Shown here piece by piece: positions 3,992 through 25,605 of a stretch of 32,652 bases of DNA. Within the stretch, counting starts at the first letter, position 1, and the number at the start of each line of letters is the position of its first letter. The stretch covers positions 1-32,652 of IMG/VR virus record IMGVR_UViG_3300028550_003449; one strand, given 5' to 3'. The translations under genes were made by a program, and so were the position numbers. The notes beneath the pieces are model-generated. The model searched no databases and had not been told where the DNA came from. It saw only the letters and a list, made by a program, of their open reading frames with translations. The DNA is from a virus.

Positions 3992-5191
3992 ATGGAAGAA
4001 AATGTAAAAAAACAGCTAGATCAGTTAGGCGATATTATAGACGCTAAACTTGAGAAAGCTCATGGACAGGCAGTCGAATCAGCGACTGGCAAGGCAGACG
4101 ATGCCCTTAAGGGAGAAATCGCAAACCTAACACAAAAATTCACTGACAGAATGGATGCTATTGAAGTATCTAGCAAAAAAAGATTTGAAGCTAATAAAAT
4201 AGAAGATAAATCATTTGCTGGAAACTTAACAAAAGCTATCAGCGAGGGTGCTTTAGAATCAATGAGAAACGGATCTAGTAGATCATCATCTTTTGAAATT
4301 AAAGCGGATATGACTGTTGCGGCTGACTTTACTGGTGCGGTTATCCCACCACAAAGAGTGCCAGGATACAAATTTGATCCTACAACATACCAAAACATAA
4401 GAAACTTAATCCCAATTGGTTCAACTAATTCGGATGTGGTTAAATATGTTAAAGAAAGTGGTTATAATAATGCGGCGGCTCCAACTGCGGAGGGTGCGGC
4501 ATTGCCACAATCTGACTTTGATATGACGGCTGTAGATGCTAACGTACAGAAAATAGGTACTTACTTAAGAATTTCTGACGAAATGCTACATGACACGCCT
4601 CAAATCACTAGCTATTTATCAGCTAGAGTGCCAGCTAAACTAATGGAGGTTGAAGATGACCAAATTTTAGGCGGAAATGGTACATCACCTAATCTTAATG
4701 GTTTAGTAACTGCATCGTCTGACTTTGATGTTTCATCGGCTGGTAAATTTTACCAATCAGTTGAAGCGGCTAACCAGTTTGACGTTTTAGTTGCGGCTCT
4801 TAACCAGTTAACAATTGCTAACTATAGAGCTGATTATATTATGCTTAATCCTACTGATTTCCATAAGATCCTATTATTAAAAGATACTACGAACAACTAT
4901 CTTAAGGATCAAGTTTATCAAGGGTTACAACCTAACTTTTTAGGAACTCCAATCGCTGTTAATAACGAGATTACAGCGGGGACATTCTTAGTAGGAAACT
5001 TTGCTCAAGCGGCTCAATTATGGGTTAGAGATAACGTATCTATTGAGTTCTTTACTCAAGACGGAATCAACGTAAGAGAAGGGTTTGTTACTGTAAGAGT
5101 AATGGAAAGAGTTGCACTAGCGACTTATTTACCAAATGGAATTATAAATGGAACTTTCTCAACTGCAATAGCAGCACTAGAAACTCCGTAA
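3992..5191 (+). CDS. Major capsid protein, HK97 gp5-like fold
   Basis: 399 residues. Residues 1 to about 104 are charged and coiled-coil-like, matching the delta/scaffold domain. A likely maturation cut lies near Lys104 (SFEIK followed by ADMT), close to the place where HK97 gp5 is cut, and is followed by TGAVIPPQR, a usual start of the mature capsid domain. Later blocks include the TAEGAALPQSDF region, GTYLRISDEML, DDQILGGNGTSPNLNG and MLNPTDFHKI, all typical of HK97-type capsid proteins. It is followed by a strong terminator, consistent with high expression. Confidence 0.96.
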   Translation: MEENVKKQLDQLGDIIDAKLEKAHGQAVESATGKADDALKGEIANLTQKFTDRMDAIEVSSKKRFEANKIEDKSFAGNLTKAISEGALESMRNGSSRSSSFEIKADMTVAADFTGAVIPPQRVPGYKFDPTTYQNIRNLIPIGSTNSDVVKYVKESGYNNAAAPTAEGAALPQSDFDMTAVDANVQKIGTYLRISDEMLHDTPQITSYLSARVPAKLMEVEDDQILGGNGTSPNLNGLVTASSDFDVSSAGKFYQSVEAANQFDVLVAALNQLTIANYRADYIMLNPTDFHKILLLKDTTNNYLKDQVYQGLQPNFLGTPIAVNNEITAGTFLVGNFAQAAQLWVRDNVSIEFFTQDGINVREGFVTVRVMERVALATYLPNGIINGTFSTAIAALETP

Positions 5192-5211: not shown

Positions 5212-5238
5212 AAAGGGGTATTTATTACCCCTTTTTTT
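5212..5238 (+). terminator. Intrinsic terminator after major capsid gene
   Basis: Stem AAAGGGGTA / TACCCCTTT (9 bp) with a 5-base loop, running into a T7 tract. It ends the head operon 20 bp after the capsid stop. Confidence 0.9.
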
Positions 5239-5282: not shown

Positions 5283-5312
5283 TTTGTAATTGAAAAAAAA
5301 GTTTTATATTTG
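5283..5312 (+). promoter_or_regulatory. Bacteroidetes-type promoter (TTTG-N18-TATATTTG)
   Basis: TTTG at 5283-5286 and TATATTTG at 5305-5312 match the -33 and -7 elements of Bacteroidetes primary sigma promoters, with 18-base spacing. It lies between the capsid terminator and a 64-aa gene. The leader that follows ends in three AAAC repeats just before ATG 5354. A near-identical arrangement occurs at 30494-30523. Confidence 0.72.
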
Positions 5313-5353
5313 TATTATAATTGCAATGAAGCAGTTAGGCAAACAAACAAACA

Positions 5354-5548
5354 ATGAAACATTTAATTTTAAACAATGGTAAATTCTTAAAAAAGAGCTT
5401 TTCAATTATGGGTATGATTATACCACAATTTTCTAACTCTTCAGAAGCTCAACAATTTAATAGTATTAACGATGCTCAATTAGAATTAAACAAGATACCT
5501 AATGGCAATAGAGATATGAGAATAGTATTGGATTTAAATTCTATATAA
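5354..5548 (+). CDS. Small hypothetical protein, monocistronic unit after capsid
   Basis: 64 residues, basic N-terminus (MKHLILNNGKFLKKSF) and a polar C-terminal half. It has its own promoter at 5283-5312 and a hairpin terminator at 5555-5577, so it appears to form a single-gene transcription unit. No membrane segment or domain is recognised. The strong signals suggest substantial expression. I cannot assign a function. Confidence 0.68.
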   Translation: MKHLILNNGKFLKKSFSIMGMIIPQFSNSSEAQQFNSINDAQLELNKIPNGNRDMRIVLDLNSI

Positions 5549-5554
5549 AACTAA

Positions 5555-5577
5555 CGGGGGTGTAAAAACCCCCTTTT
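5555..5577 (+). terminator. Short hairpin terminator after 64-aa gene
   Basis: GGGGGT / ACCCCC stem with a 6-base loop followed by four T. The T tract is short, so termination may be partial. Confidence 0.6.
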
Positions 5578-5589
5578 AAAAACTTAGAT

Positions 5590-5703
5590 ATGTTTGATAT
5601 GTATAAAAAATTCTTAAAACAAGGTCCTAACAACTGGATGTGGCTTATAGCAATTCATGTAGTTGTTTATTCAATAATATTAATACTAATAATAGATTTT
5701 TAA
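5590..5703 (+). CDS. 37-aa single-pass membrane protein
   Basis: ATG 5590 to TAA 5701-5703. The first 16 residues are polar and basic (MFDMYKKFLKQGPNNW). The rest is one hydrophobic helix (MWLIAIHVVVYSIILILII) ending in DF. It stands at the head of four tightly packed tiny genes. Possible roles include superinfection exclusion or interference with a host membrane target, but this is only inference from size and topology. Confidence 0.6.
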   Translation: MFDMYKKFLKQGPNNWMWLIAIHVVVYSIILILIIDF

Positions 5704-5705
5704 TT

Positions 5706-5843
5706 ATGGCAAATAAAGAAAAATTTTTACACAATATAAATAAAGCCAAAAGGCAAAGAGAAAACCAAAGGCAATTATTAGAGCAAAAATTCATGAATAC
5801 TTTTAATCCATTCAATACAGCTAACTTAAAAGAAGATGCATAA
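5706..5843 (+). CDS. 45-aa basic hypothetical protein
   Basis: Starts at ATG 5706, two bases after the previous stop (TAATTATGG). A longer frame from 5640 exists but would lie inside the membrane protein gene in another frame, so I reject that start. The product is helical and rich in Lys, Arg and Gln (NKAKRQRENQRQLLEQKF). Function unknown. The next gene starts eight bases before its end. Confidence 0.6.
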   Translation: MANKEKFLHNINKAKRQRENQRQLLEQKFMNTFNPFNTANLKEDA

Positions 5844-5985
5844 AGACAACGTAAAGCACTTAATAGCCGGTTTAATGCTATTTATGGCGGTAAGGGTCAT
5901 ATTACTATACTCCGACTTTTTAACATCCACTATACTAACTATTTTCGCAATATCAGTATTAACAAATGAAACGGAAAATGATTGA
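5836..5985 (+). CDS. 49-aa membrane protein, probably two helices
   Basis: ATG 5836 to TGA 5983-5985, overlapping the previous gene by 8 bases. Hydrophobic stretches are HLIAGLMLFMAVRVILLY and STILTIFAISVL with a short YSDF turn and an acidic tail (NETEND). The overlap at both ends supports it as a real coupled gene. Function unknown. Confidence 0.58.
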   Translation: MHKDNVKHLIAGLMLFMAVRVILLYSDFLTSTILTIFAISVLTNETEND

Positions 5986-6106
5986 TATTGATGATATAGT
6001 GCAAAGCTCAATTGATCCATTATTATGGGAAAAATTGCCAGCTATTAAAAAATTAAATGTACTTCAAAAATTAACTGAGATTGAAAAAATAATATATTCA
6101 CAATAA
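5966..6106 (+). CDS. 46-aa hypothetical protein
   Basis: ATG 5966 lies 20 bases before the previous stop, and the gene ends with TAA 6104-6106. The product is amphipathic and helical (IQSSIDPLLWEKLP-type pattern, then KLNVLQKLTEIEKII). It is the last gene of the tiny-gene cluster; a terminator follows 42 bases later. Function unknown. Confidence 0.55.
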   Translation: MKRKMIDIDDIVQSSIDPLLWEKLPAIKKLNVLQKLTEIEKIIYSQ

Positions 6107-6147
6107 TTTTGTTTTTAAATTTGTTTGTTTGAATCCTGTGAATGTTG

Positions 6148-6179
6148 AAAACCGATTATTAATTTAGTCGGTTTTTTTT
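6148..6179 (+). terminator. Intrinsic terminator after tiny-gene cluster
   Basis: AAAACCGA / TCGGTTTT 8-bp stem with a 12-base loop, running into a T tract. It separates the tiny genes from the nuclease-like gene. Confidence 0.85.
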
Positions 6180-6192
6180 ATATATTGACATA

Positions 6193-6573
6193 GTGAACGA
6201 CAACCAAAAGGGATGTTATGCAGAGTATATTTTTTGCACTATGGCTATGGAGCAAAATTTTAACGTCTGTATGCCGCTTTTAGGAGCTTCTCACTATGAT
6301 TGTATCGTTGAGAAAAAAGGCAAACTCTTTAAGATCCAAATTAAGTTTATAAGCAAAGACAGAATTAAAAGTAATTATAATCGTTACTCAGAGCAATGCG
6401 TTTTAAGAAGTTCAGGGCGATACTATAAAAAAGAGTATGTAGATTTTTTCGCCTTATATCACCAGCAATTAAATGGATTTTTTATAATACCAAATATTGA
6501 GCAAAAAACAATAAGAATTAGGGCCGATGGTATTTATAAAGAAAATTTCAATAACTTTGACCTGATTTCATAA
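6193..6573 (+). CDS. PD-(D/E)XK nuclease-like protein
   Basis: 126 residues starting at GTG 6193. An ATG-initiated form would start at residue 17 and lose the first conserved acid. The pattern is that of small PD-(D/E)XK proteins: Glu11 in CYAEYIF, Asp36 in SHYDCIVE, then Gln49 and Lys51 in KIQIK, with an aromatic-rich tail. Such proteins include restriction-like endonucleases and Holliday junction resolvases. Here Q49 replaces the usual acid of the ExK pair, as in several families that use QxK. It sits alone between two terminators within the structural region, so an accessory role such as host DNA attack, anti-defence or packaging-linked cleavage is possible. Confidence 0.65.
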   Translation: MNDNQKGCYAEYIFCTMAMEQNFNVCMPLLGASHYDCIVEKKGKLFKIQIKFISKDRIKSNYNRYSEQCVLRSSGRYYKKEYVDFFALYHQQLNGFFIIPNIEQKTIRIRADGIYKENFNNFDLIS

Positions 6574-6581
6574 ATAAGTTA

Positions 6582-6620
6582 AGGCGCTACTAGATTAAAA
6601 ACTTAGTGGCGCTTTTTTTT
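6582..6620 (+). terminator. Intrinsic terminator after nuclease-like gene
   Basis: AGGCGCTACTA pairs with TAGTGGCGCTT through an 11-bp stem with two wobble pairs, followed by a T tract. It insulates the accessory island from the connector operon. Confidence 0.88.
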
Positions 6621-6636
6621 TATCTTTACATAAAAT
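6621..6636 (+). promoter_or_regulatory. Module promoter motif, copy 1 (connector operon)
   Basis: TATCTTTACATAAAAT lies directly after a terminator T tract and 8 bases before the first connector-operon ATG. It differs at one base from copies at 18307-18322 and 32482-32497, each of which precedes the first gene of a structural block. Confidence 0.6.
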
Positions 6637-6643
6637 AAGTATC

Positions 6644-6853
6644 ATGAAAATAAAACTTTTAACATCAATTTCTAAAGAAGGTCGTAATTATAAAGAGGGC
6701 GATATAATAGAGATTAACGAATCTAATTTATCAAAATGGATTTCAATGGGTTGGGGTGAAGCTATTGCAAAAAAAGAAGCAAAGCTAAAAAAAGAAACTA
6801 AGGAGCTAAAAATTGATTCAAAAGAAACCAAAAATGAGACAAGTAAAGATTAA
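6644..6853 (+). CDS. Small conserved head-tail region protein
   Basis: 69 residues. The N-terminal half (MKIKLLTSISKEGRNYKEGD then IIEINESNLSKWISMGWGEA) resembles short SH3-like proteins that often precede the head-tail adaptor gene in Bacteroidetes phages. The C-terminal third is a Lys/Glu-rich helix. It is the first gene of the connector operon and overlaps the adaptor gene. Confidence 0.7.
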   Translation: MKIKLLTSISKEGRNYKEGDIIEINESNLSKWISMGWGEAIAKKEAKLKKETKELKIDSKETKNETSKD

Positions 6854-7352
6854 TTCCATAACAGGAAGCGAAATTGTAACTTCAACAGATTTAAAGCTAT
6901 ACGCTAGAATTGAAACATCAGCGGATGACACTATTATAGCTCGACAGATAACACAATCAAGGATTTGGTGTGAAAATTATATATCCAGGGACATTGTAGC
7001 AAAAAATAGATCTTATTATTTAGATGCAACTGAAGGAATATTTAGCATTCCATTTGGTCCTGTTAGCTCAATAGTTAGTATTCATGCGAATGGTGTTGCG
7101 GTTACACATACAAATATAGGTTTAGATAAGGAAACAATTGAGCTTGATGGTGGCCCAGCGATTAAGGTTACTGTTGTTTATATAACAGAGGGATTAAATG
7201 ATTCTTTACTACAACAGGCAATTTTACAATTAGCCGCTACATATTATGAGAATAGATCCGATTTTATTAGTGGTGATGAGAATAATGCCTCAGATTTAAT
7301 CCCTACAGATGTTAGGGATATTTTAAATTCATACAAAACAATGTTTTTATAA
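6834..7352 (+). CDS. Head-tail connector/adaptor, HK97 gp6-like
   Basis: 172 residues from ATG 6834; an in-frame ATG at 6813 would add seven residues that look like translated neighbour sequence, so I prefer 6834. The pattern TSTDLKLYARIETSADDTII, then AxIWCENYISRDI, a YYLDA-FSIPFGPVSSI strand region and a C-terminal LLQQAILQLAATYYENR helix is typical of gp6-like/phiE125 gp8-like adaptor proteins. This protein forms the ring under the portal. Its stop overlaps the next start. Confidence 0.88.
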   Translation: MRQVKINSITGSEIVTSTDLKLYARIETSADDTIIARQITQSRIWCENYISRDIVAKNRSYYLDATEGIFSIPFGPVSSIVSIHANGVAVTHTNIGLDKETIELDGGPAIKVTVVYITEGLNDSLLQQAILQLAATYYENRSDFISGDENNASDLIPTDVRDILNSYKTMFL

Positions 7353-8574: not shown

Positions 8575-8712
8575 ATGGAGACATCTAGCATGAAATTATA
8601 TATAATTAACACAATTGCCTTTGGTTTATCATTAACTAACATAGAAATAACATTAAGAATTGTTTTATTATTAGTGAGTATTATCTATACAATTAAAAAA
8701 TTAAAAAAATGA
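8575..8712 (+). CDS. 45-aa membrane protein, possible holin or antiholin
   Basis: ATG 8575 to TGA 8710-8712, whose stop overlaps the endolysin start. Two hydrophobic stretches (LYIINTIAFGLSL and IVLLLVSIIYTI) are followed by a basic tail KKLKK. A short two-helix protein immediately before an endolysin is a common holin arrangement. A larger 3TM holin candidate occurs at 9977, so this could be either a second holin or a regulator. Confidence 0.62.
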   Translation: METSSMKLYIINTIAFGLSLTNIEITLRIVLLLVSIIYTIKKLKK

Positions 8713-9176
8713 TCAGCGAACATATTTCTTACAAGGAAGCGACAAGAAGCGCTACAGCGATGCGTTTAAGCATAGAAAACAAGCCGAATGACTATGAGCT
8801 TCAAAATATGGAATTGATTGCGGAAAAGGTGTTTGAACCGCTTAGAAAGGCAGTTAACGGCCCAATTAAAATAAATTCATTTTTTAGATCGGAAGATTTA
8901 AACAAAGCAATTGGCGGATCTAGCAGATCGCAACATTGCCAAGGCAGAGCAATTGACCTGGATGATAATTATGGTTATATGTCAAATAATGATATGTATA
9001 ACTATATAAAAAATAATTTAGATTTTGATCAACTTATATTTGAGTTTCCAGACAAAAAAGGCAATGCCGCTTGGATCCATGTGAGCTATGTAGATGCTGA
9101 TTCTAACAGAAAAAAATGTTTAAAAGCTATTAAAGAAAATGGTAAAACAAAATATATAGATATAACAAACGAATAA
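8709..9176 (+). CDS. Endolysin, peptidase M15 family
   Basis: 155 residues forming a single M15-type zinc peptidase domain. Zinc ligands and catalytic residues are visible as His76 and Asp83 in SQHCQGRAIDLD and His124 in WIHVSY, with an acidic residue near Glu112. FFRSEDLNKAIGGSSRSQH is the usual run before the first histidine. The enzyme cuts the peptide stems of peptidoglycan. It has no signal sequence, so it needs a holin for export. Confidence 0.93.
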   Translation: MISEHISYKEATRSATAMRLSIENKPNDYELQNMELIAEKVFEPLRKAVNGPIKINSFFRSEDLNKAIGGSSRSQHCQGRAIDLDDNYGYMSNNDMYNYIKNNLDFDQLIFEFPDKKGNAAWIHVSYVDADSNRKKCLKAIKENGKTKYIDITNE

Positions 9177-9635: not shown

Positions 9636-9984
9636 ATTTATAACATTAGTATTTATTTTACTTATTATGGCTTGCGGAAACTATGTAAAGCAACCAGTAG
9701 CATCTCACGTGGTTGCCGTTACATTAGAAGGGGACACGATACTAGTGGCAATTGATAAAATACGACCTAATCAATACATTAATTTTTACCCTATCTATAA
9801 CCGCCCTTATTATCAGCCATATAGGTACGATTATCAATGGAGACATTATGGTTATATAGGTAGCTCATCAAATAATATTTATAAACCAGCTCCAACAGGT
9901 GGCACAACATATAATAATAATTCAGGAAAAAGCATATCAAGGATAGATTTTGAAAAACCAATAAAAAGATCAAAAGATGAGTAA
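9622..9984 (+). CDS. Lipoprotein (candidate outer spanin)
   Basis: 120 residues from ATG 9622, or 118 from ATG 9628. The N-terminus is a classic lipoprotein signal (MNKFITLVFILLIMACGN) with the lipobox IMAC. The mature part has a short beta-like region (VVAVTLEGDTILVAIDKIRP) and a Tyr/Pro-rich central segment. A small phage lipoprotein between a coiled-coil membrane protein and the holin fits an outer-membrane spanin subunit. An adhesion or exclusion lipoprotein cannot be excluded. Confidence 0.68.
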   Translation: MTMNKFITLVFILLIMACGNYVKQPVASHVVAVTLEGDTILVAIDKIRPNQYINFYPIYNRPYYQPYRYDYQWRHYGYIGSSSNNIYKPAPTGGTTYNNNSGKSISRIDFEKPIKRSKDE

Positions 9985-10378
9985 AATATTAGCCAAATTA
10001 TTTGGATCTACAGGCGCTGGAATTGCTGAAAAAATCAGTGGAATAGTTGATAAATTTGTGCAAACTAAAGAAGAGAAGGACCAATTTAAAAAAGAAATGG
10101 ATCAAATCTTTATAAATGCCGAAGCGGATATGCAAAAAAATGTTACTGAGAGATGGAAATTAGACAGTCAACAGCATTCGAGCTGGTTGGCTAAAAATGT
10201 GCGCCCTTTAGTTTTAATCTTTTTAGTTGTTTCTACTGTTTTAATGGTGTTTATTGATGCGGGTGTTATATCATTTGATGTAAAAGCAAGCTGGATTGAT
10301 TTATTGCAATTGGTTTTGATAACTGTTATAGGTGCCTATTTTGGTGGTCGCTCTATTGAAAAGATTAGAAAAAAATAG
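9977..10378 (+). CDS. Holin, 3TM family
   Basis: 133 residues. Residues 1-65 are an amphipathic, charged helix (VQTKEEKDQFKKEMDQIF). Then come SWLAKNVRPLVLIFLVV, a second hydrophobic stretch and a third, LLQLVLITVIGAYFGGRSIEKI. The W-x-x-x-x-RP motif before the first helix and the GxxxGxRSIEK end are typical of the 3TM holins known from gene-transfer agents and many phages. It overlaps the lipoprotein gene by 8 bases. Confidence 0.85.
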   Translation: MSKILAKLFGSTGAGIAEKISGIVDKFVQTKEEKDQFKKEMDQIFINAEADMQKNVTERWKLDSQQHSSWLAKNVRPLVLIFLVVSTVLMVFIDAGVISFDVKASWIDLLQLVLITVIGAYFGGRSIEKIRKK

Positions 10379-18289: not shown

Positions 18290-18306
18290 GTGGCTTATTT
18301 TTTTTG
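18275..18306 (+). terminator. Terminator overlapping end of gpGT gene
   Basis: AGCCATCT / AGGTGGCT stem (one wobble) with a 4-base AAAT loop, then a T-rich run. The 5' arm lies within the last codons of the T-like frame and the loop and 3' arm include its TAG stop. Confidence 0.78.
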
Positions 18307-18322
18307 TATTTTTACATAAAAT
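18307..18322 (+). promoter_or_regulatory. Module promoter motif, copy 2 (tape measure)
   Basis: TATTTTTACATAAAAT lies directly after a terminator and 7 bases before the tape measure ATG. The identical 16 bases occur before the portal gene at 32482-32497; identity extends to 22 bases (18302-18323 with 32477-32498). Confidence 0.62.
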
Positions 18323-18328
18323 TATATT

Positions 18329-20404
18329 ATGGCAAATAATGATTTAAAAGTTAATTTAATTGGGGATGCCTCGAAATTAACCGCCTCATTAAATAAAGCG
18401 ACCTCAAAGCTATCGGCATTTGGTAAAAAGGCAAAAGATGTCGGAAAAAACTTATCATTAAAATTAACGCTTCCTATTGCCTTAGCGGCTGGAGCGGCTA
18501 TAAAATTAGCTAGTGATTTTGACGAAGCTATGAACAAAGTTGATGTTTCTTTTGGAAAATCATCTAAATCAGTTAAAAAATTCGCAGAAACAACACTAAC
18601 GCAGTTTGGTATTGCCGAGGGGTCCGCTTTAGATATGGCATCCATGTTTGGTGATATGGGAACTTCCATGGGTTTTACTCAAAAAGCGGCGGCGGGGATG
18701 AGTGTTTCAATGGTTGGTTTAGCTGGGGATCTAGCATCATTTAAAAATATTGGTATTAGCCAAGCTACAACGGCCCTGGCTGGAGTTTTTACAGGTGAAA
18801 CAGAGTCATTAAAGAAATTGGGGATAGTTATGACCGAGGCAAATTTAAAACAATTTGCATTTAATCAAGGCATTCAAACCAGTGTAAAAGATATGAGCCA
18901 AGCCGCTAAAGTCAGCTTAAGATATGCTTATATTTTGTCAGTAACTGGAAATTCTCAGGGTGATTTTGCTAGAACCTCAGAGGCGGCGGCGAATCAAATG
19001 AAAACATTTGGGCAAGGAATGAAGGAGGTGGGGAATGAGATTGGTCAGATATTATTGCCAGCATTTACAAAAGTTGTCAAATTTGGAAATTCTTTAATTA
19101 AAAAATTTATTTCTTTAGACGATAAAACAAAAAAAATCATTGTTGGTGTTGCTTTATTTGCGGCGGCAATTGGTCCCCTTATTTTTGCAATTGGTTCTTT
19201 GGCTAGTGTTGCAGGGGTTATGGCTACAGGATTTGGATTATTGTCAGCGGCAACCTTATTTTTAAAAGGAAGATTTATTGATTTATATAGAGTTATAATA
19301 GTTAATCCATTTGTAGCGATTGGAGTTGCTTTAGTGGCTTTGACTGCTTTTGTAGTTACTCAAGCTCAAAAAATGACACCTTTAGTTAGTAAATGGAATA
19401 CACTTGTAAACTTATTTAAATCGGGTGGCAATATGACAAAATTTGCCACTTTGCAATTTATAGATCAAGCGGCGGCGCAAAAAGAGGCGGCGCTAGCGGC
19501 TGGAGAAAATGGAGAGGCAACGGAAAAGGAAACGGGGAAAATTGATGAGTTAAAACAAGCGTTATTATCTTTAAATGGAGAGTTAGAAAAGACATCAACA
19601 CTTAAAAAAAAGGTTAGTTCTGTTAGTGCTTTTGAAAACGAAGATCCTAAAAAAAGTATTAATTTTAATACTGGGAAAATGGATAATATGGGCGATCTTG
19701 GATTGGTTTCAACCAATGCTGATCCTATAAAATTATTAGCTGATAGCGTTTCCACTAGCAACGGAGTACTAACCGAAAATTTAAATATAACAAAGGGAAT
19801 ATTAACCCAAAAGGGACTTGAGCTCCAGGAAGCAACATTACAACTTAATGAATCAATGTCCTCAATAATGCAGTCGGGAATGGTAAATATAGCCACTGGA
19901 ATTGGTGAGGCATTAGGTGCCGCAATGTCTGGTTCCGCTTCTTTAGTTGAAGGGTTAAGCTCTGTTTTATTGGGCGGAATTGGTGCGATGGTTTCTCAAC
20001 TAGGGCAATTATTAATTCAAACAGGGATAGGACTTTTGGCAATAAAAAAATCTTTAGAAACTATAAACCCCTATTTAGCAATAGCCGCTGGGATTGCGCT
20101 TGTTGCTTTAGGTGCCGCTTTTGCCGCTGGATCTAAAAAGATCGCATCTGGAGGCGGTGGCGGTGGTGGTCCTACTAAATTCGCAAATGGCGGAATAGTA
20201 AGCTCGCCAACTTTAGGTTTAATGGGCGAATACCCTGGAGCTAGAAGCAACCCAGAGGTTATTGCTCCACTGGACAAATTAAAAAACATGATAGGAGAAA
20301 GAGGAGGATCTAATGTTCAAGTCGCTGGAGAGTTTGTTTTAAAAGGACAGGATCTGGTTGTTGCTTTACAAAGAGCAAATAATAATAGAAATAGAATTAT
20401 ATAA
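18329..20404 (+). CDS. Tape measure protein
   Basis: 691 residues. The N-terminus (DLKVNLIGDASKLTASLNKA) is the usual opening of tape measure proteins. Helical, Ala-rich sequence follows, with hydrophobic segments near 275-360 (IIVGVALFAAAIGPLIFAIG and others) and near 540-605. A Gly-rich turn (GGGGGGGPTKFANGG) precedes the C-terminal LMGEYPGARSNPEVIAPLDK block, which is common in tape measures. At about 1.5 angstrom per residue the tail would be near 100 nm, a siphovirus size; this is a rule-of-thumb estimate. The next gene starts directly at the stop. Confidence 0.92.
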   Translation: MANNDLKVNLIGDASKLTASLNKATSKLSAFGKKAKDVGKNLSLKLTLPIALAAGAAIKLASDFDEAMNKVDVSFGKSSKSVKKFAETTLTQFGIAEGSALDMASMFGDMGTSMGFTQKAAAGMSVSMVGLAGDLASFKNIGISQATTALAGVFTGETESLKKLGIVMTEANLKQFAFNQGIQTSVKDMSQAAKVSLRYAYILSVTGNSQGDFARTSEAAANQMKTFGQGMKEVGNEIGQILLPAFTKVVKFGNSLIKKFISLDDKTKKIIVGVALFAAAIGPLIFAIGSLASVAGVMATGFGLLSAATLFLKGRFIDLYRVIIVNPFVAIGVALVALTAFVVTQAQKMTPLVSKWNTLVNLFKSGGNMTKFATLQFIDQAAAQKEAALAAGENGEATEKETGKIDELKQALLSLNGELEKTSTLKKKVSSVSAFENEDPKKSINFNTGKMDNMGDLGLVSTNADPIKLLADSVSTSNGVLTENLNITKGILTQKGLELQEATLQLNESMSSIMQSGMVNIATGIGEALGAAMSGSASLVEGLSSVLLGGIGAMVSQLGQLLIQTGIGLLAIKKSLETINPYLAIAAGIALVALGAAFAAGSKKIASGGGGGGGPTKFANGGIVSSPTLGLMGEYPGARSNPEVIAPLDKLKNMIGERGGSNVQVAGEFVLKGQDLVVALQRANNNRNRII

Positions 20405-23510: not shown

Positions 23511-23651
23511 ATGGCAATAGATGGGGAAACATTTGAATATTATAGAATTACTGAAAAAGTAAAAGCTATAAAAAACTCAATAGATATATTAAAAAAACAG
23601 GGTTACGTTATAATAGATCTTGAGGGGAATATTTTACGAAAAGAATTGTAA
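23511..23651 (+). CDS. 46-aa hypothetical protein
   Basis: ATG 23511 to TAA 23649-23651. The product is MAIDGETFEYYRITEKVKAI then a helix and a short strand end (GYVIIDLEGNILRKEL), which looks like a small folded domain. It lies 11 bases after the SSB-tip gene and before a terminator. Function unknown. Confidence 0.6.
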   Translation: MAIDGETFEYYRITEKVKAIKNSIDILKKQGYVIIDLEGNILRKEL

Positions 23652-23796: not shown

Positions 23797-24012
23797 ATGA
23801 AATTAAATAGAGTAAGCAAAGTTTATCGACCAATGAGAATATTTGGCACATTATTAAAAGACATTTTCTGGATGGGAAAACCTAAAGAAACAAAACATGG
23901 TTGGGTTAGATACCCCTTATATGTTAAAACCAAATACCAACAAAAAAAGGTATTACAAATAATTAATAAAGAAATTAGAGCAAATCAAAAAATAGAAAAT
24001 GAAAATAATTAG
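23797..24012 (+). CDS. Small basic hypothetical protein
   Basis: 71 residues, strongly basic (RVSKVYRPMRIFGTLLKDIF, then KHGWVRYPLYVKTKYQQKK). It is the first gene after the terminator at 23733 and overlaps the exonuclease gene by 14 bases. The charge suggests nucleic acid binding, but no known domain is recognised. Confidence 0.62.
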   Translation: MKLNRVSKVYRPMRIFGTLLKDIFWMGKPKETKHGWVRYPLYVKTKYQQKKVLQIINKEIRANQKIENENN

Positions 24013-24754
24013 AGATAGCAATGAAAAATATCACTCACATAATTCAATTAGTGCCAGTGGTTTAAAAACGATATATAAAAAATCAGTATATCATTTAATT
24101 AATCAAAGATTTAAAGAAACTCCAGCCATGGCGCTAGGGACTGCGGTCCATGCGGCAATACTAGAATCAGATGATTTTTATAATCAATATCATGTAATTG
24201 AAAAAATAGATAAAAGGACCAAAGCTGGAAAAGAGGAGTATTTAAAACAATCAAATCTGGCAAAAGATAAAATAGTTTTAGATCATGAAAATCATGAAAT
24301 CATAAAAAATATATTAGGCGCATATAGAAATCATGATTTAGCACAAAAATATTGCCAGGGTGAAATTGAACTATCTCACTACTCTCAAATCAATGGCGTT
24401 GATGTTAGGGTTCGACCAGATTGTGTTAATAAAATTTCCAACTTTATAAGTGATGTAAAAACCTGTCAAGATAATTCTCCTGAGGCATTTAAAAGAGATG
24501 TTTATAAGTGGGGGTATCATTTACAAGCGGCTTTTTATATGGATGTTTTAGGGATTGAAAATTTTAGATTTATAGCGGTCACTACTTCATTCCCTCACAC
24601 TGTTGAGGTTTATTCTTTAGATGAAAAAACTATTGAATTTGGGCGAAATGCATGGAAACAAGCATTTGAAAACTGGAAAAAATATCTTGATACTGGAAAA
24701 ATGCCAGGATATTCATGGTATCAATTTAATGAAGATGGCTCATATATATTATAA
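23999..24754 (+). CDS. RecE / exonuclease VIII-like PD-(D/E)XK nuclease
   Basis: 251 residues. The signature blocks of the exonuclease VIII C-terminal domain are visible: SISASGLKTIYKKSVYHLIN, ALGTAVHAAILE with His51, VRVRPDCVN with Asp141, FISDVKTC with Asp152 and Lys154, and YHLQAAFYMD with Gln176. The enzyme would resect duplex DNA 5' to 3' and expose ssDNA for the annealing protein upstream, as RecE works with RecT. Confidence 0.9.
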   Translation: MKIIRDSNEKYHSHNSISASGLKTIYKKSVYHLINQRFKETPAMALGTAVHAAILESDDFYNQYHVIEKIDKRTKAGKEEYLKQSNLAKDKIVLDHENHEIIKNILGAYRNHDLAQKYCQGEIELSHYSQINGVDVRVRPDCVNKISNFISDVKTCQDNSPEAFKRDVYKWGYHLQAAFYMDVLGIENFRFIAVTTSFPHTVEVYSLDEKTIEFGRNAWKQAFENWKKYLDTGKMPGYSWYQFNEDGSYIL

Positions 24755-25230: not shown

Positions 25231-25605
25231 ATGAAAAGAAACCCATACGCTAAATATCTAGGCAAAGAAGATATATTACAAACTCATGTAATGAGATATA
25301 TAAGTTTAAAATATCCTAAAGCACTTTACACCCATGTAGCAAACGAGGGTAAACGAACCCCATTCGAACAATATAAATTAAAAATTTTAGGCACTAAACC
25401 AGGGATCCCCGATTTAATGATATTTACGCCAAATGCAAATAAAAGCGGTTTAGCGATTGAATTAAAAGCGGGGTATAACAAACCTACCGAAAACCAAAAA
25501 AGATGGCTTAAATGGCTTGAAAATGCGAACTGGGTTGCTGTTTGGCATAATAATTTCGATCTTTGTGTTGAAACAATAGATAAATATTTTAATAATGAGT
25601 TATGA
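25231..25605 (+). CDS. VRR-NUC domain nuclease
   Basis: 124 residues covering one VRR-NUC domain: EDILQTHVMRYISLKYP, HVANEGKRTP, GIPDLMIF with Asp61, AIELKAG with Glu77 and Lys79, then TENQKRWLKWLENANWVAVW with Gln89. These stand-alone VRR-NUC proteins are structure-specific nucleases, some of which cut Holliday junctions. A role in resolving branched replication products before packaging is likely. Confidence 0.9.
   Translation: MKRNPYAKYLGKEDILQTHVMRYISLKYPKALYTHVANEGKRTPFEQYKLKILGTKPGIPDLMIFTPNANKSGLAIELKAGYNKPTENQKRWLKWLENANWVAVWHNNFDLCVETIDKYFNNEL

What the first reader, a model, noticed from the sequence alone, without database searches (positions are those of the whole stretch)
5283..6620. 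Insulated island of tiny genes between capsid and connector genes
A clear promoter, four terminators including the capsid one, and six small genes (64, 37, 45, 49, 46 and 126 aa) are inserted where head genes are usually contiguous. Two tiny products are membrane proteins, and the last is a PD-(D/E)XK-like protein. Separate transcription plus tiny membrane proteins is the pattern of cargo genes for superinfection exclusion or anti-defence. The four central genes are too short for routine gene calling.
Basis: inference. Interest (0 to 1): 0.6.

Follow-up and report, generated by a model that had tools for sequence, protein, structure and literature searches.

The report
Swappable gene island in marine phages
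Between the capsid gene and the head-tail connector genes, a large family of uncultured marine viruses of (probably) Bacteroidota carries its own transcription unit of tiny genes, in which the first gene is swapped from phage to phage while a DNA-cutting enzyme and a few tiny proteins (two of them membrane proteins) are kept; it is a likely store of weapons against competing phages or host defences, but that function has not been tested.

Summary
Promoter, four terminators and six small genes are present at the stated coordinates. The frames are real genes: in relatives they are intact, in the same order, and under purifying selection (dN/dS 0.13-0.52; capsid 0.12). The promoter is a Bacteroidota sigma-A type (TTTG-N18-TATATTTG), at a fixed distance (+93 to +96) behind the capsid stop in most relatives.

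The island has two zones. Directly behind the promoter lies an exchange slot: dozens of unrelated small-gene families alternate there. DNA on the promoter side is 86% identical, the slot interior 36%. The 64-aa gene is merely this phage's present occupant. Behind it comes a conserved set: a 37-aa one-helix membrane protein (B37), a 45-aa basic protein, a 49-aa membrane hairpin (D49), a 46-aa protein and a 126-aa nuclease. The nuclease is in 105 of 105 distinct capsid-connector intervals. Alleles of the set are exchanged independently of capsid and connector. B37 also sits, as a bare ORF, in unrelated phages.

So 'cargo island' is supported for the slot and B37. The nuclease is a core gene, not optional cargo; its closest solved structure is homing endonuclease I-Ssp6803I. 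Superinfection exclusion or anti-defence is the most likely use, but untested.

The parts
3992..5191 (+). major capsid protein (HK97 type), left neighbour
   Evidence: PF05065 4.9e-40; phrog_10
5212..5234 (+). capsid terminator, left border of the island
   Evidence: kept in 61/61 relatives with B37
5283..5312 (+). Bacteroidota-type promoter TTTG-N18-TATATTTG (-7 box 5305-5312)
   Evidence: strict match at about +93 to +96 behind the capsid stop in most relatives; -7 box within +80 to +135 in 84/105 distinct intervals; -7 consensus TAnnTTTG as in PMC9723704
5354..5548 (+). A64: present occupant of the exchange slot (S1), 64 aa
   Evidence: found only here and in L003
5556..5573 (.). terminator GGGGG...CCCCC at the slot's right border (inverted repeat; T-rich tail on both strands)
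   Evidence: same hairpin in 14/61 relatives at this place
5590..5703 (+). B37: one-helix membrane protein, also a bare mobile ORF in unrelated phages
   Evidence: hydropathy; 57/105 intervals; other contexts; dN/dS 0.16
5706..5843 (+). C45: small basic protein
   Evidence: conserved family; dN/dS 0.44
5836..5985 (+). D49: two-helix membrane hairpin, invariant R20, D27, T30
   Evidence: 96/105 intervals; alignment; model helices 3-25 and 28-43, pLDDT 78; dN/dS 0.42
5966..6106 (+). E46: small protein, overlaps D49
   Evidence: 68/105 intervals; alignment; dN/dS 0.52
6147..6176 (+). terminator behind the B-C-D-E operon
   Evidence: hairpin at this place in relatives with paired changes in the stem
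6193..6573 (+). F126: PD-(D/E)XK nuclease, I-Ssp6803I/Hjc-like fold; E11, D36, Q49, K51 invariant
   Evidence: PF11645 4.1e-13; model pLDDT 91.5; 2OST best solved match; 105/105 intervals; residues; dN/dS 0.13
6582..6614 (+). terminator behind F126, right border of the island
   Evidence: 48/51 relatives
6621..6629 (+). TATCTTTAC, -7-like box directly behind the terminator: probable start of the connector transcription unit
   Evidence: TATCTTT[AG] in every distinct F-G spacer printed; no -33 box recognised
6644..6853 (+). G69: small head-region protein, right neighbour
   Evidence: phrog_2616 2.7e-4; 83/105 intervals
6834..7352 (+). head-tail connector
   Evidence: PF05135; phrog_442 and phrog_40

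Best explanation
A modular accessory island set into the head operon and insulated on both sides. Shown by sequence: (1) the capsid transcript ends at a conserved terminator, and a conserved promoter of the host's main sigma-factor type starts the island; (2) directly behind that promoter is an exchange slot in which different small genes alternate between close relatives, while the DNA on the promoter side stays nearly identical; (3) next come overlapping tiny genes, among them a mobile one-helix membrane protein (B37) and a conserved two-helix membrane hairpin (D49), then a PD-(D/E)XK nuclease with intact active-site residues (F126), present in every relative examined; (4) alleles of the island have recombined independently of the capsid and connector genes on either side. 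Inferred: occupants are swapped by homologous recombination, the conserved terminator-promoter stretch serving as one arm and the conserved genes downstream as the other; host RNA polymerase can read the island without any phage factor, hence possibly from the start of infection; the swapped products act on the host or on competing phages (superinfection exclusion or anti-defence); B37 and D49 act at the inner membrane; F126 is a structure-specific or recombination endonuclease.
For: Frames real. Promoter position fixed; two exact promoter variants searched in all viral contigs gave 27 contig rows, nearly all already known as members of this lineage. Slot: 154 ORFs in 54 clusters; identity 86% in the border against 36% inside. 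Loci with no slot gene exist: L005, L021, L057, L058. Extra promoter copies inside the slot in L007, L030, L032, L034, L035, L040, L042. Capsid-connector spacing varies (sd 380) while protease-capsid (sd 5.5) and F126-G69 (sd 12.6) do not. Pairwise identities: capsid-connector rho 0.65, capsid-B37 0.07, capsid-F126 0.19, B37-F126 0.64. B37 is about 70-93% identical over the aligned part in phages whose only other detectably shared genes are terminase (large subunit at most 44%), a ParB-like gene and a 71-aa gene. F126 beside ERF-type recombination genes in other phages. Parallels: conserved early promoters mark anti-defence genes in archaeal viruses (PMC11065993); membrane superinfection-exclusion proteins such as HK97 gp15 (PMC10883804).
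Against: No slot gene convincingly matches a known defence or anti-defence family. F126 and D49 behave as core genes, which fits a replication, packaging or lysis role as well. No transcription, translation or phenotype data; these phages are uncultured. The host phylum is inferred from promoter type only. Slot diversity could reflect gene turnover without strong selection. Loci are not independent samples (many near-identical contigs), so counts are of sequences, not events.
Confidence: 0.6

Rival explanations
1. The conserved part (B-C-D-E-F) is a late housekeeping set: F126 cleaves branched DNA (Holliday-junction-like) before packaging or during recombination, and the membrane proteins tune lysis or ejection. 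Only the slot gene is cargo.
For: F126 in 105/105 and D49 in 96/105 intervals; dN/dS of F126 like the capsid's; Hjc is the next-best single-domain fold after I-Ssp6803I; F126 beside ERF/SSB-type genes in other phages.
Against: A VRR-NUC nuclease (25231-25605), a RecE-like exonuclease (23999-24754), a holin (9977-10378) and an M15 peptidase (8709-9176) are already present. Housekeeping genes would not need alleles exchanged independently of the head genes. B37 is not detected in 48 of 105 intervals.
Confidence: 0.25
2. F126 is a free-standing homing endonuclease that drives the exchange of the island, cutting genomes that carry another allele (marker exclusion).
For: Closest solved structure by sequence and fold is homing endonuclease I-Ssp6803I (2OST); catalytic residues intact; island alleles exchanged independently of the flanks.
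Against: No relative lacks F126, so no empty homing site was seen; it is under capsid-like constraint and is an ordinary gene without an intron. In another phage type it lies beside recombination genes.
Confidence: 0.12
3. Slot genes are neutral passengers gained and lost at a tolerant position between two transcription units.
For: No functional family matches; high turnover.
Against: The promoter is kept at a fixed place; the same slot families recur in phages with capsids only 66-71% identical and in unrelated phages.
Confidence: 0.08

Closest known systems
Morons: accessory genes with own promoter and terminator between late operons (e.g. HK97 gp15)
   Same: Insertion between structural genes, own promoter and terminator, small membrane products
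   Different: No integrase was recognised, so probably a virulent phage; several tiny genes in one unit; fixed promoter with an interchangeable first gene; conserved nuclease at the end
Anti-defence genes behind conserved early promoters in archaeal viruses (PMC11065993)
   Same: Variable small genes behind one conserved promoter
   Different: Bacteroidota-type phage; single site inside the head region; no function shown
I-Ssp6803I (PDB 2OST) and Hjc-type PD-(D/E)XK nucleases; Pfam PF11645, phrog_5018
   Same: Fold and E/D/Q-x-K residues
   Different: Free-standing, about 20% identical to 2OST, no intron, universal in this lineage
Hot spots of accessory genes in phages and satellites (from general knowledge, not checked here)
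   Same: Fixed place, changing content
   Different: Genes mostly of 40-120 aa and of unknown families; behind a constant promoter

Membership tests
Moron / accessory transcription unit | own promoter and terminator | tested here: met
   by sequence only:
Moron / accessory transcription unit | present in some, absent in other close relatives at that site | tested here: met
   met for the slot gene and B37; not met for F126 (105/105)
Moron / accessory transcription unit | expressed from a prophage | not testable with these tools
   no integrase recognised among the annotated window genes; no host known
Superinfection-exclusion membrane protein | inner-membrane protein | tested here: met
   predicted only: hydropathy, D49 hairpin model
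Superinfection-exclusion membrane protein | blocks infection by other phages | not testable with these tools
   needs experiment
Anti-defence protein | match to a described defence or anti-defence family | tested here: not met
   PADLOC: one marginal hit, E 0.0077, among 45 proteins
PD-(D/E)XK nuclease PF11645 | profile match above cut-off and intact active site | tested here: met
   50 bits against cut-off 26.1; E11, D36, Q49, K51 invariant
Homing endonuclease | empty alleles in relatives, or intron/intein residence | tested here: not met
   no allele without F126 in 105 intervals; a free-standing ORF
Holliday junction resolvase (Hjc) | fold and junction cleavage | tested here: inconclusive
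   Hjc E 1.9e-4 against 2OST 2e-7; cleavage of junctions not testable

The most novel reading that the evidence does not exclude
Uncultured marine phages, probably of Bacteroidota, share a promoter-driven exchange bay for tiny anti-defence or exclusion genes inside the head operon. A 34-37 aa one-helix membrane protein (B37) is a mobile exclusion peptide spread as a bare ORF among unrelated phages, and the adjoining I-Ssp6803I-like nuclease works in exclusion or in driving the exchange.
Probability: 0.25. Interest if true: 0.75.

Novelty: new variant of a known kind. Interest (0 to 1): 0.55.

Why it matters
It gives a simple rule (look directly behind the capsid terminator for TTTG-N18-TATATTTG) that pulls dozens of unstudied small gene families out of uncultured marine phages, each a testable candidate for exclusion or anti-defence. 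It also shows a protein of 34-37 aa, easily missed by routine gene calling and absent from 50,697 catalogued phage records, moving as a bare ORF between unrelated phages under capsid-like constraint.

Tried and rejected
Near-DNA search of cultured phages: no match. B37 in cultured phages: one chance-level match, E 6; D49: none; G69: none. Capsid-based search of bacterial and archaeal genomes found one contig, in a MAG labelled Woesearchaeota (L083), probably misbinned because this lineage uses Bacteroidota-type promoters; so the host was not identified, and B37 was not sought in Bacteroidota genomes. Pfam, PHROGs and PADLOC on 45 island proteins gave only isolated marginal hits, apart from one PHROG of unknown function. 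The E. coli-type sigma-70 hit at 5290-5318 overlaps the Bacteroidota-type promoter and was set aside in its favour. C45 as an antiterminator (basic helix among terminators) was considered; nothing here tests it. The idea that B37 or D49 is the holin was set aside because a holin family match exists at 9977-10378. In the other phage types that carry B37 no such promoter was found within 1500 bases upstream, so the promoter does not travel with B37.

Full report
What is there. The window is a 32.7 kb virus record with a siphovirus gene order: portal, minor head protein, protease, capsid, the island, connector genes, tail genes, replication genes and, at the other end, terminase. The promoter is not of E. 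coli type: TTTG-N18-TATATTTG at 5283-5312 matches the Bacteroidota pattern with its TAnnTTTG -7 box (consensus in PMC9723704). Two other strict matches on the + strand lie inside genes.

The frames are genes. The capsid protein brought in 80 related loci. B37, C45, D49, E46 and F126 are found there in the same order, mostly with C-D and D-E overlapping, without internal stops. Median dN/dS values are 0.16, 0.44, 0.42, 0.52 and 0.13, against 0.12 for the capsid. Genes C, D and E overlap, which can distort their values.

Architecture is conserved. The capsid terminator is present in 61/61 B37-bearing relatives; the terminator behind F126 in 48/51; the one behind E46 in 32/53 at my threshold, which misses the window's own copy because it has only three G-C pairs. 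Spacers printed show paired changes in the stems (for example ACCGA/TCGGT against GCCAG/CTGGT and CCCAG/CTGGG). Behind the F126 terminator every printed spacer has TATCTTT[AG], a likely -7 box for the connector genes. The island promoter's -7 box sits about +107 to +124 behind the capsid stop in nearly all of the 61 B37 loci and within +80 to +135 in 84/105 distinct capsid-connector intervals gathered from all scans.

An exchange slot. Between promoter and B37 the content differs from phage to phage. Across this slot and a second, optional one between B37 and C45, 154 ORFs fall into 54 clusters; a few of these clusters are divergent C45 or D49 homologues (for example clusters 2 and 50), so the number of true cargo families is somewhat lower. 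The 64-aa gene of the window recurs only in L003. Some loci have no slot gene (L005, L021, L057, L058). DNA from the capsid stop to +125 is 86% identical on average, the slot interior 36%, the 40 bases before B37 43%. Some loci carry a second promoter copy before a second gene. Spacing control: capsid-connector sd 380, protease-capsid sd 5.5.

The whole island is mosaic. Over 51 loci, pairwise identities of capsid and connector go together (rho 0.65), but capsid against B37 gives 0.07 and against F126 0.19, while B37 and F126 give 0.64. Example: L004 shares a 97% identical capsid with the window but a 56% identical F126; L015 has an 85% capsid and an 85% F126.

Conserved members. F126 is in 105/105 distinct intervals, D49 in 96, C45 in 69, E46 in 68, B37 in 57. 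About ten of these intervals came in through an F126 query and are biased for it. The small families are sought with short queries, so absences may be missed homologues.

B37 is mobile. A search with B37 alone found it in 18 loci where neither the capsid nor the other island genes were detected. In those I read in detail it lies behind the large terminase gene, or in L133 behind what looks like a capsid region. Similarity begins and ends with the ORF. These phages detectably share with the window little more than terminase, one ParB-like gene and a 71-aa gene. Slot genes are shared too: cluster 13 at 80% identity with L101 and L104, cluster 1 directly upstream of B37 in both phage types, cluster 30 at 98% with L148.

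F126. The model is confident (pLDDT 91.5). Best solved match is I-Ssp6803I, PDB 2OST, by profile (3.8e-5) and fold (2e-7), followed by Hjc resolvases and SPARDA nuclease domains. E11, D36, Q49 and K51 are invariant. In loci of another phage type (L317, L320, L331, L335) F126 lies between M15-peptidase and holin-like genes and genes that by sequence look like ERF annealing protein and SSB (my reading, no profile search was run on those). This points to recombination or junction cleavage rather than homing.

Mechanism. Best reading: an accessory unit readable by host RNA polymerase, whose first gene is swapped by recombination, its product aimed at competing phages or host defence, with the membrane proteins acting at the inner membrane. 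The anatomy is shown; transcription, swapping mechanism and target are inferred. Close parallels are morons such as HK97 gp15 (PMC10883804) and promoter-marked anti-defence genes of archaeal viruses (PMC11065993). No slot family has a convincing known match.

Limits. Loci are contigs from public metagenomes, many near-identical; counts are not independent events. The host phylum rests on promoter type alone. No expression or phenotype data exist.

Noticed in passing
window 23797-24012: 71-aa ORF in the early region resembles a tiny ORF upstream of B37 in unrelated phages (36% over 69 aa, E 5e-16, to L154; found in 8 of 18 such loci).
   Followed up: partly
window 23511-23651: 46-aa ORF in the early region resembles a slot gene of L044 (50% over 32 aa, E 9e-10), so slot families also occur outside the island.
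   Followed up: partly
window 6613-6671 and 18299-18357: 77% identical stretches (T-run, promoter-like box, start codon) before G69 and before the tape-measure gene: possibly a shared late start signal.
   Followed up: partly
L083: A relative of this phage (capsid 68%) lies in a public genome labelled Woesearchaeota; probably a misbinned phage contig.
   Followed up: no
L046-L050: A capsid clade (74-75%) lacks detectable B37, D49 and E46 but keeps a C45-like gene and F126.
   Followed up: no
L022, L030, L053, L064 and 15 other loci, between B37 and C45: A second slot holds a conserved 88-98 aa family (NLKLKDAFKLAM...) of unknown function in 19 loci.
   Followed up: no
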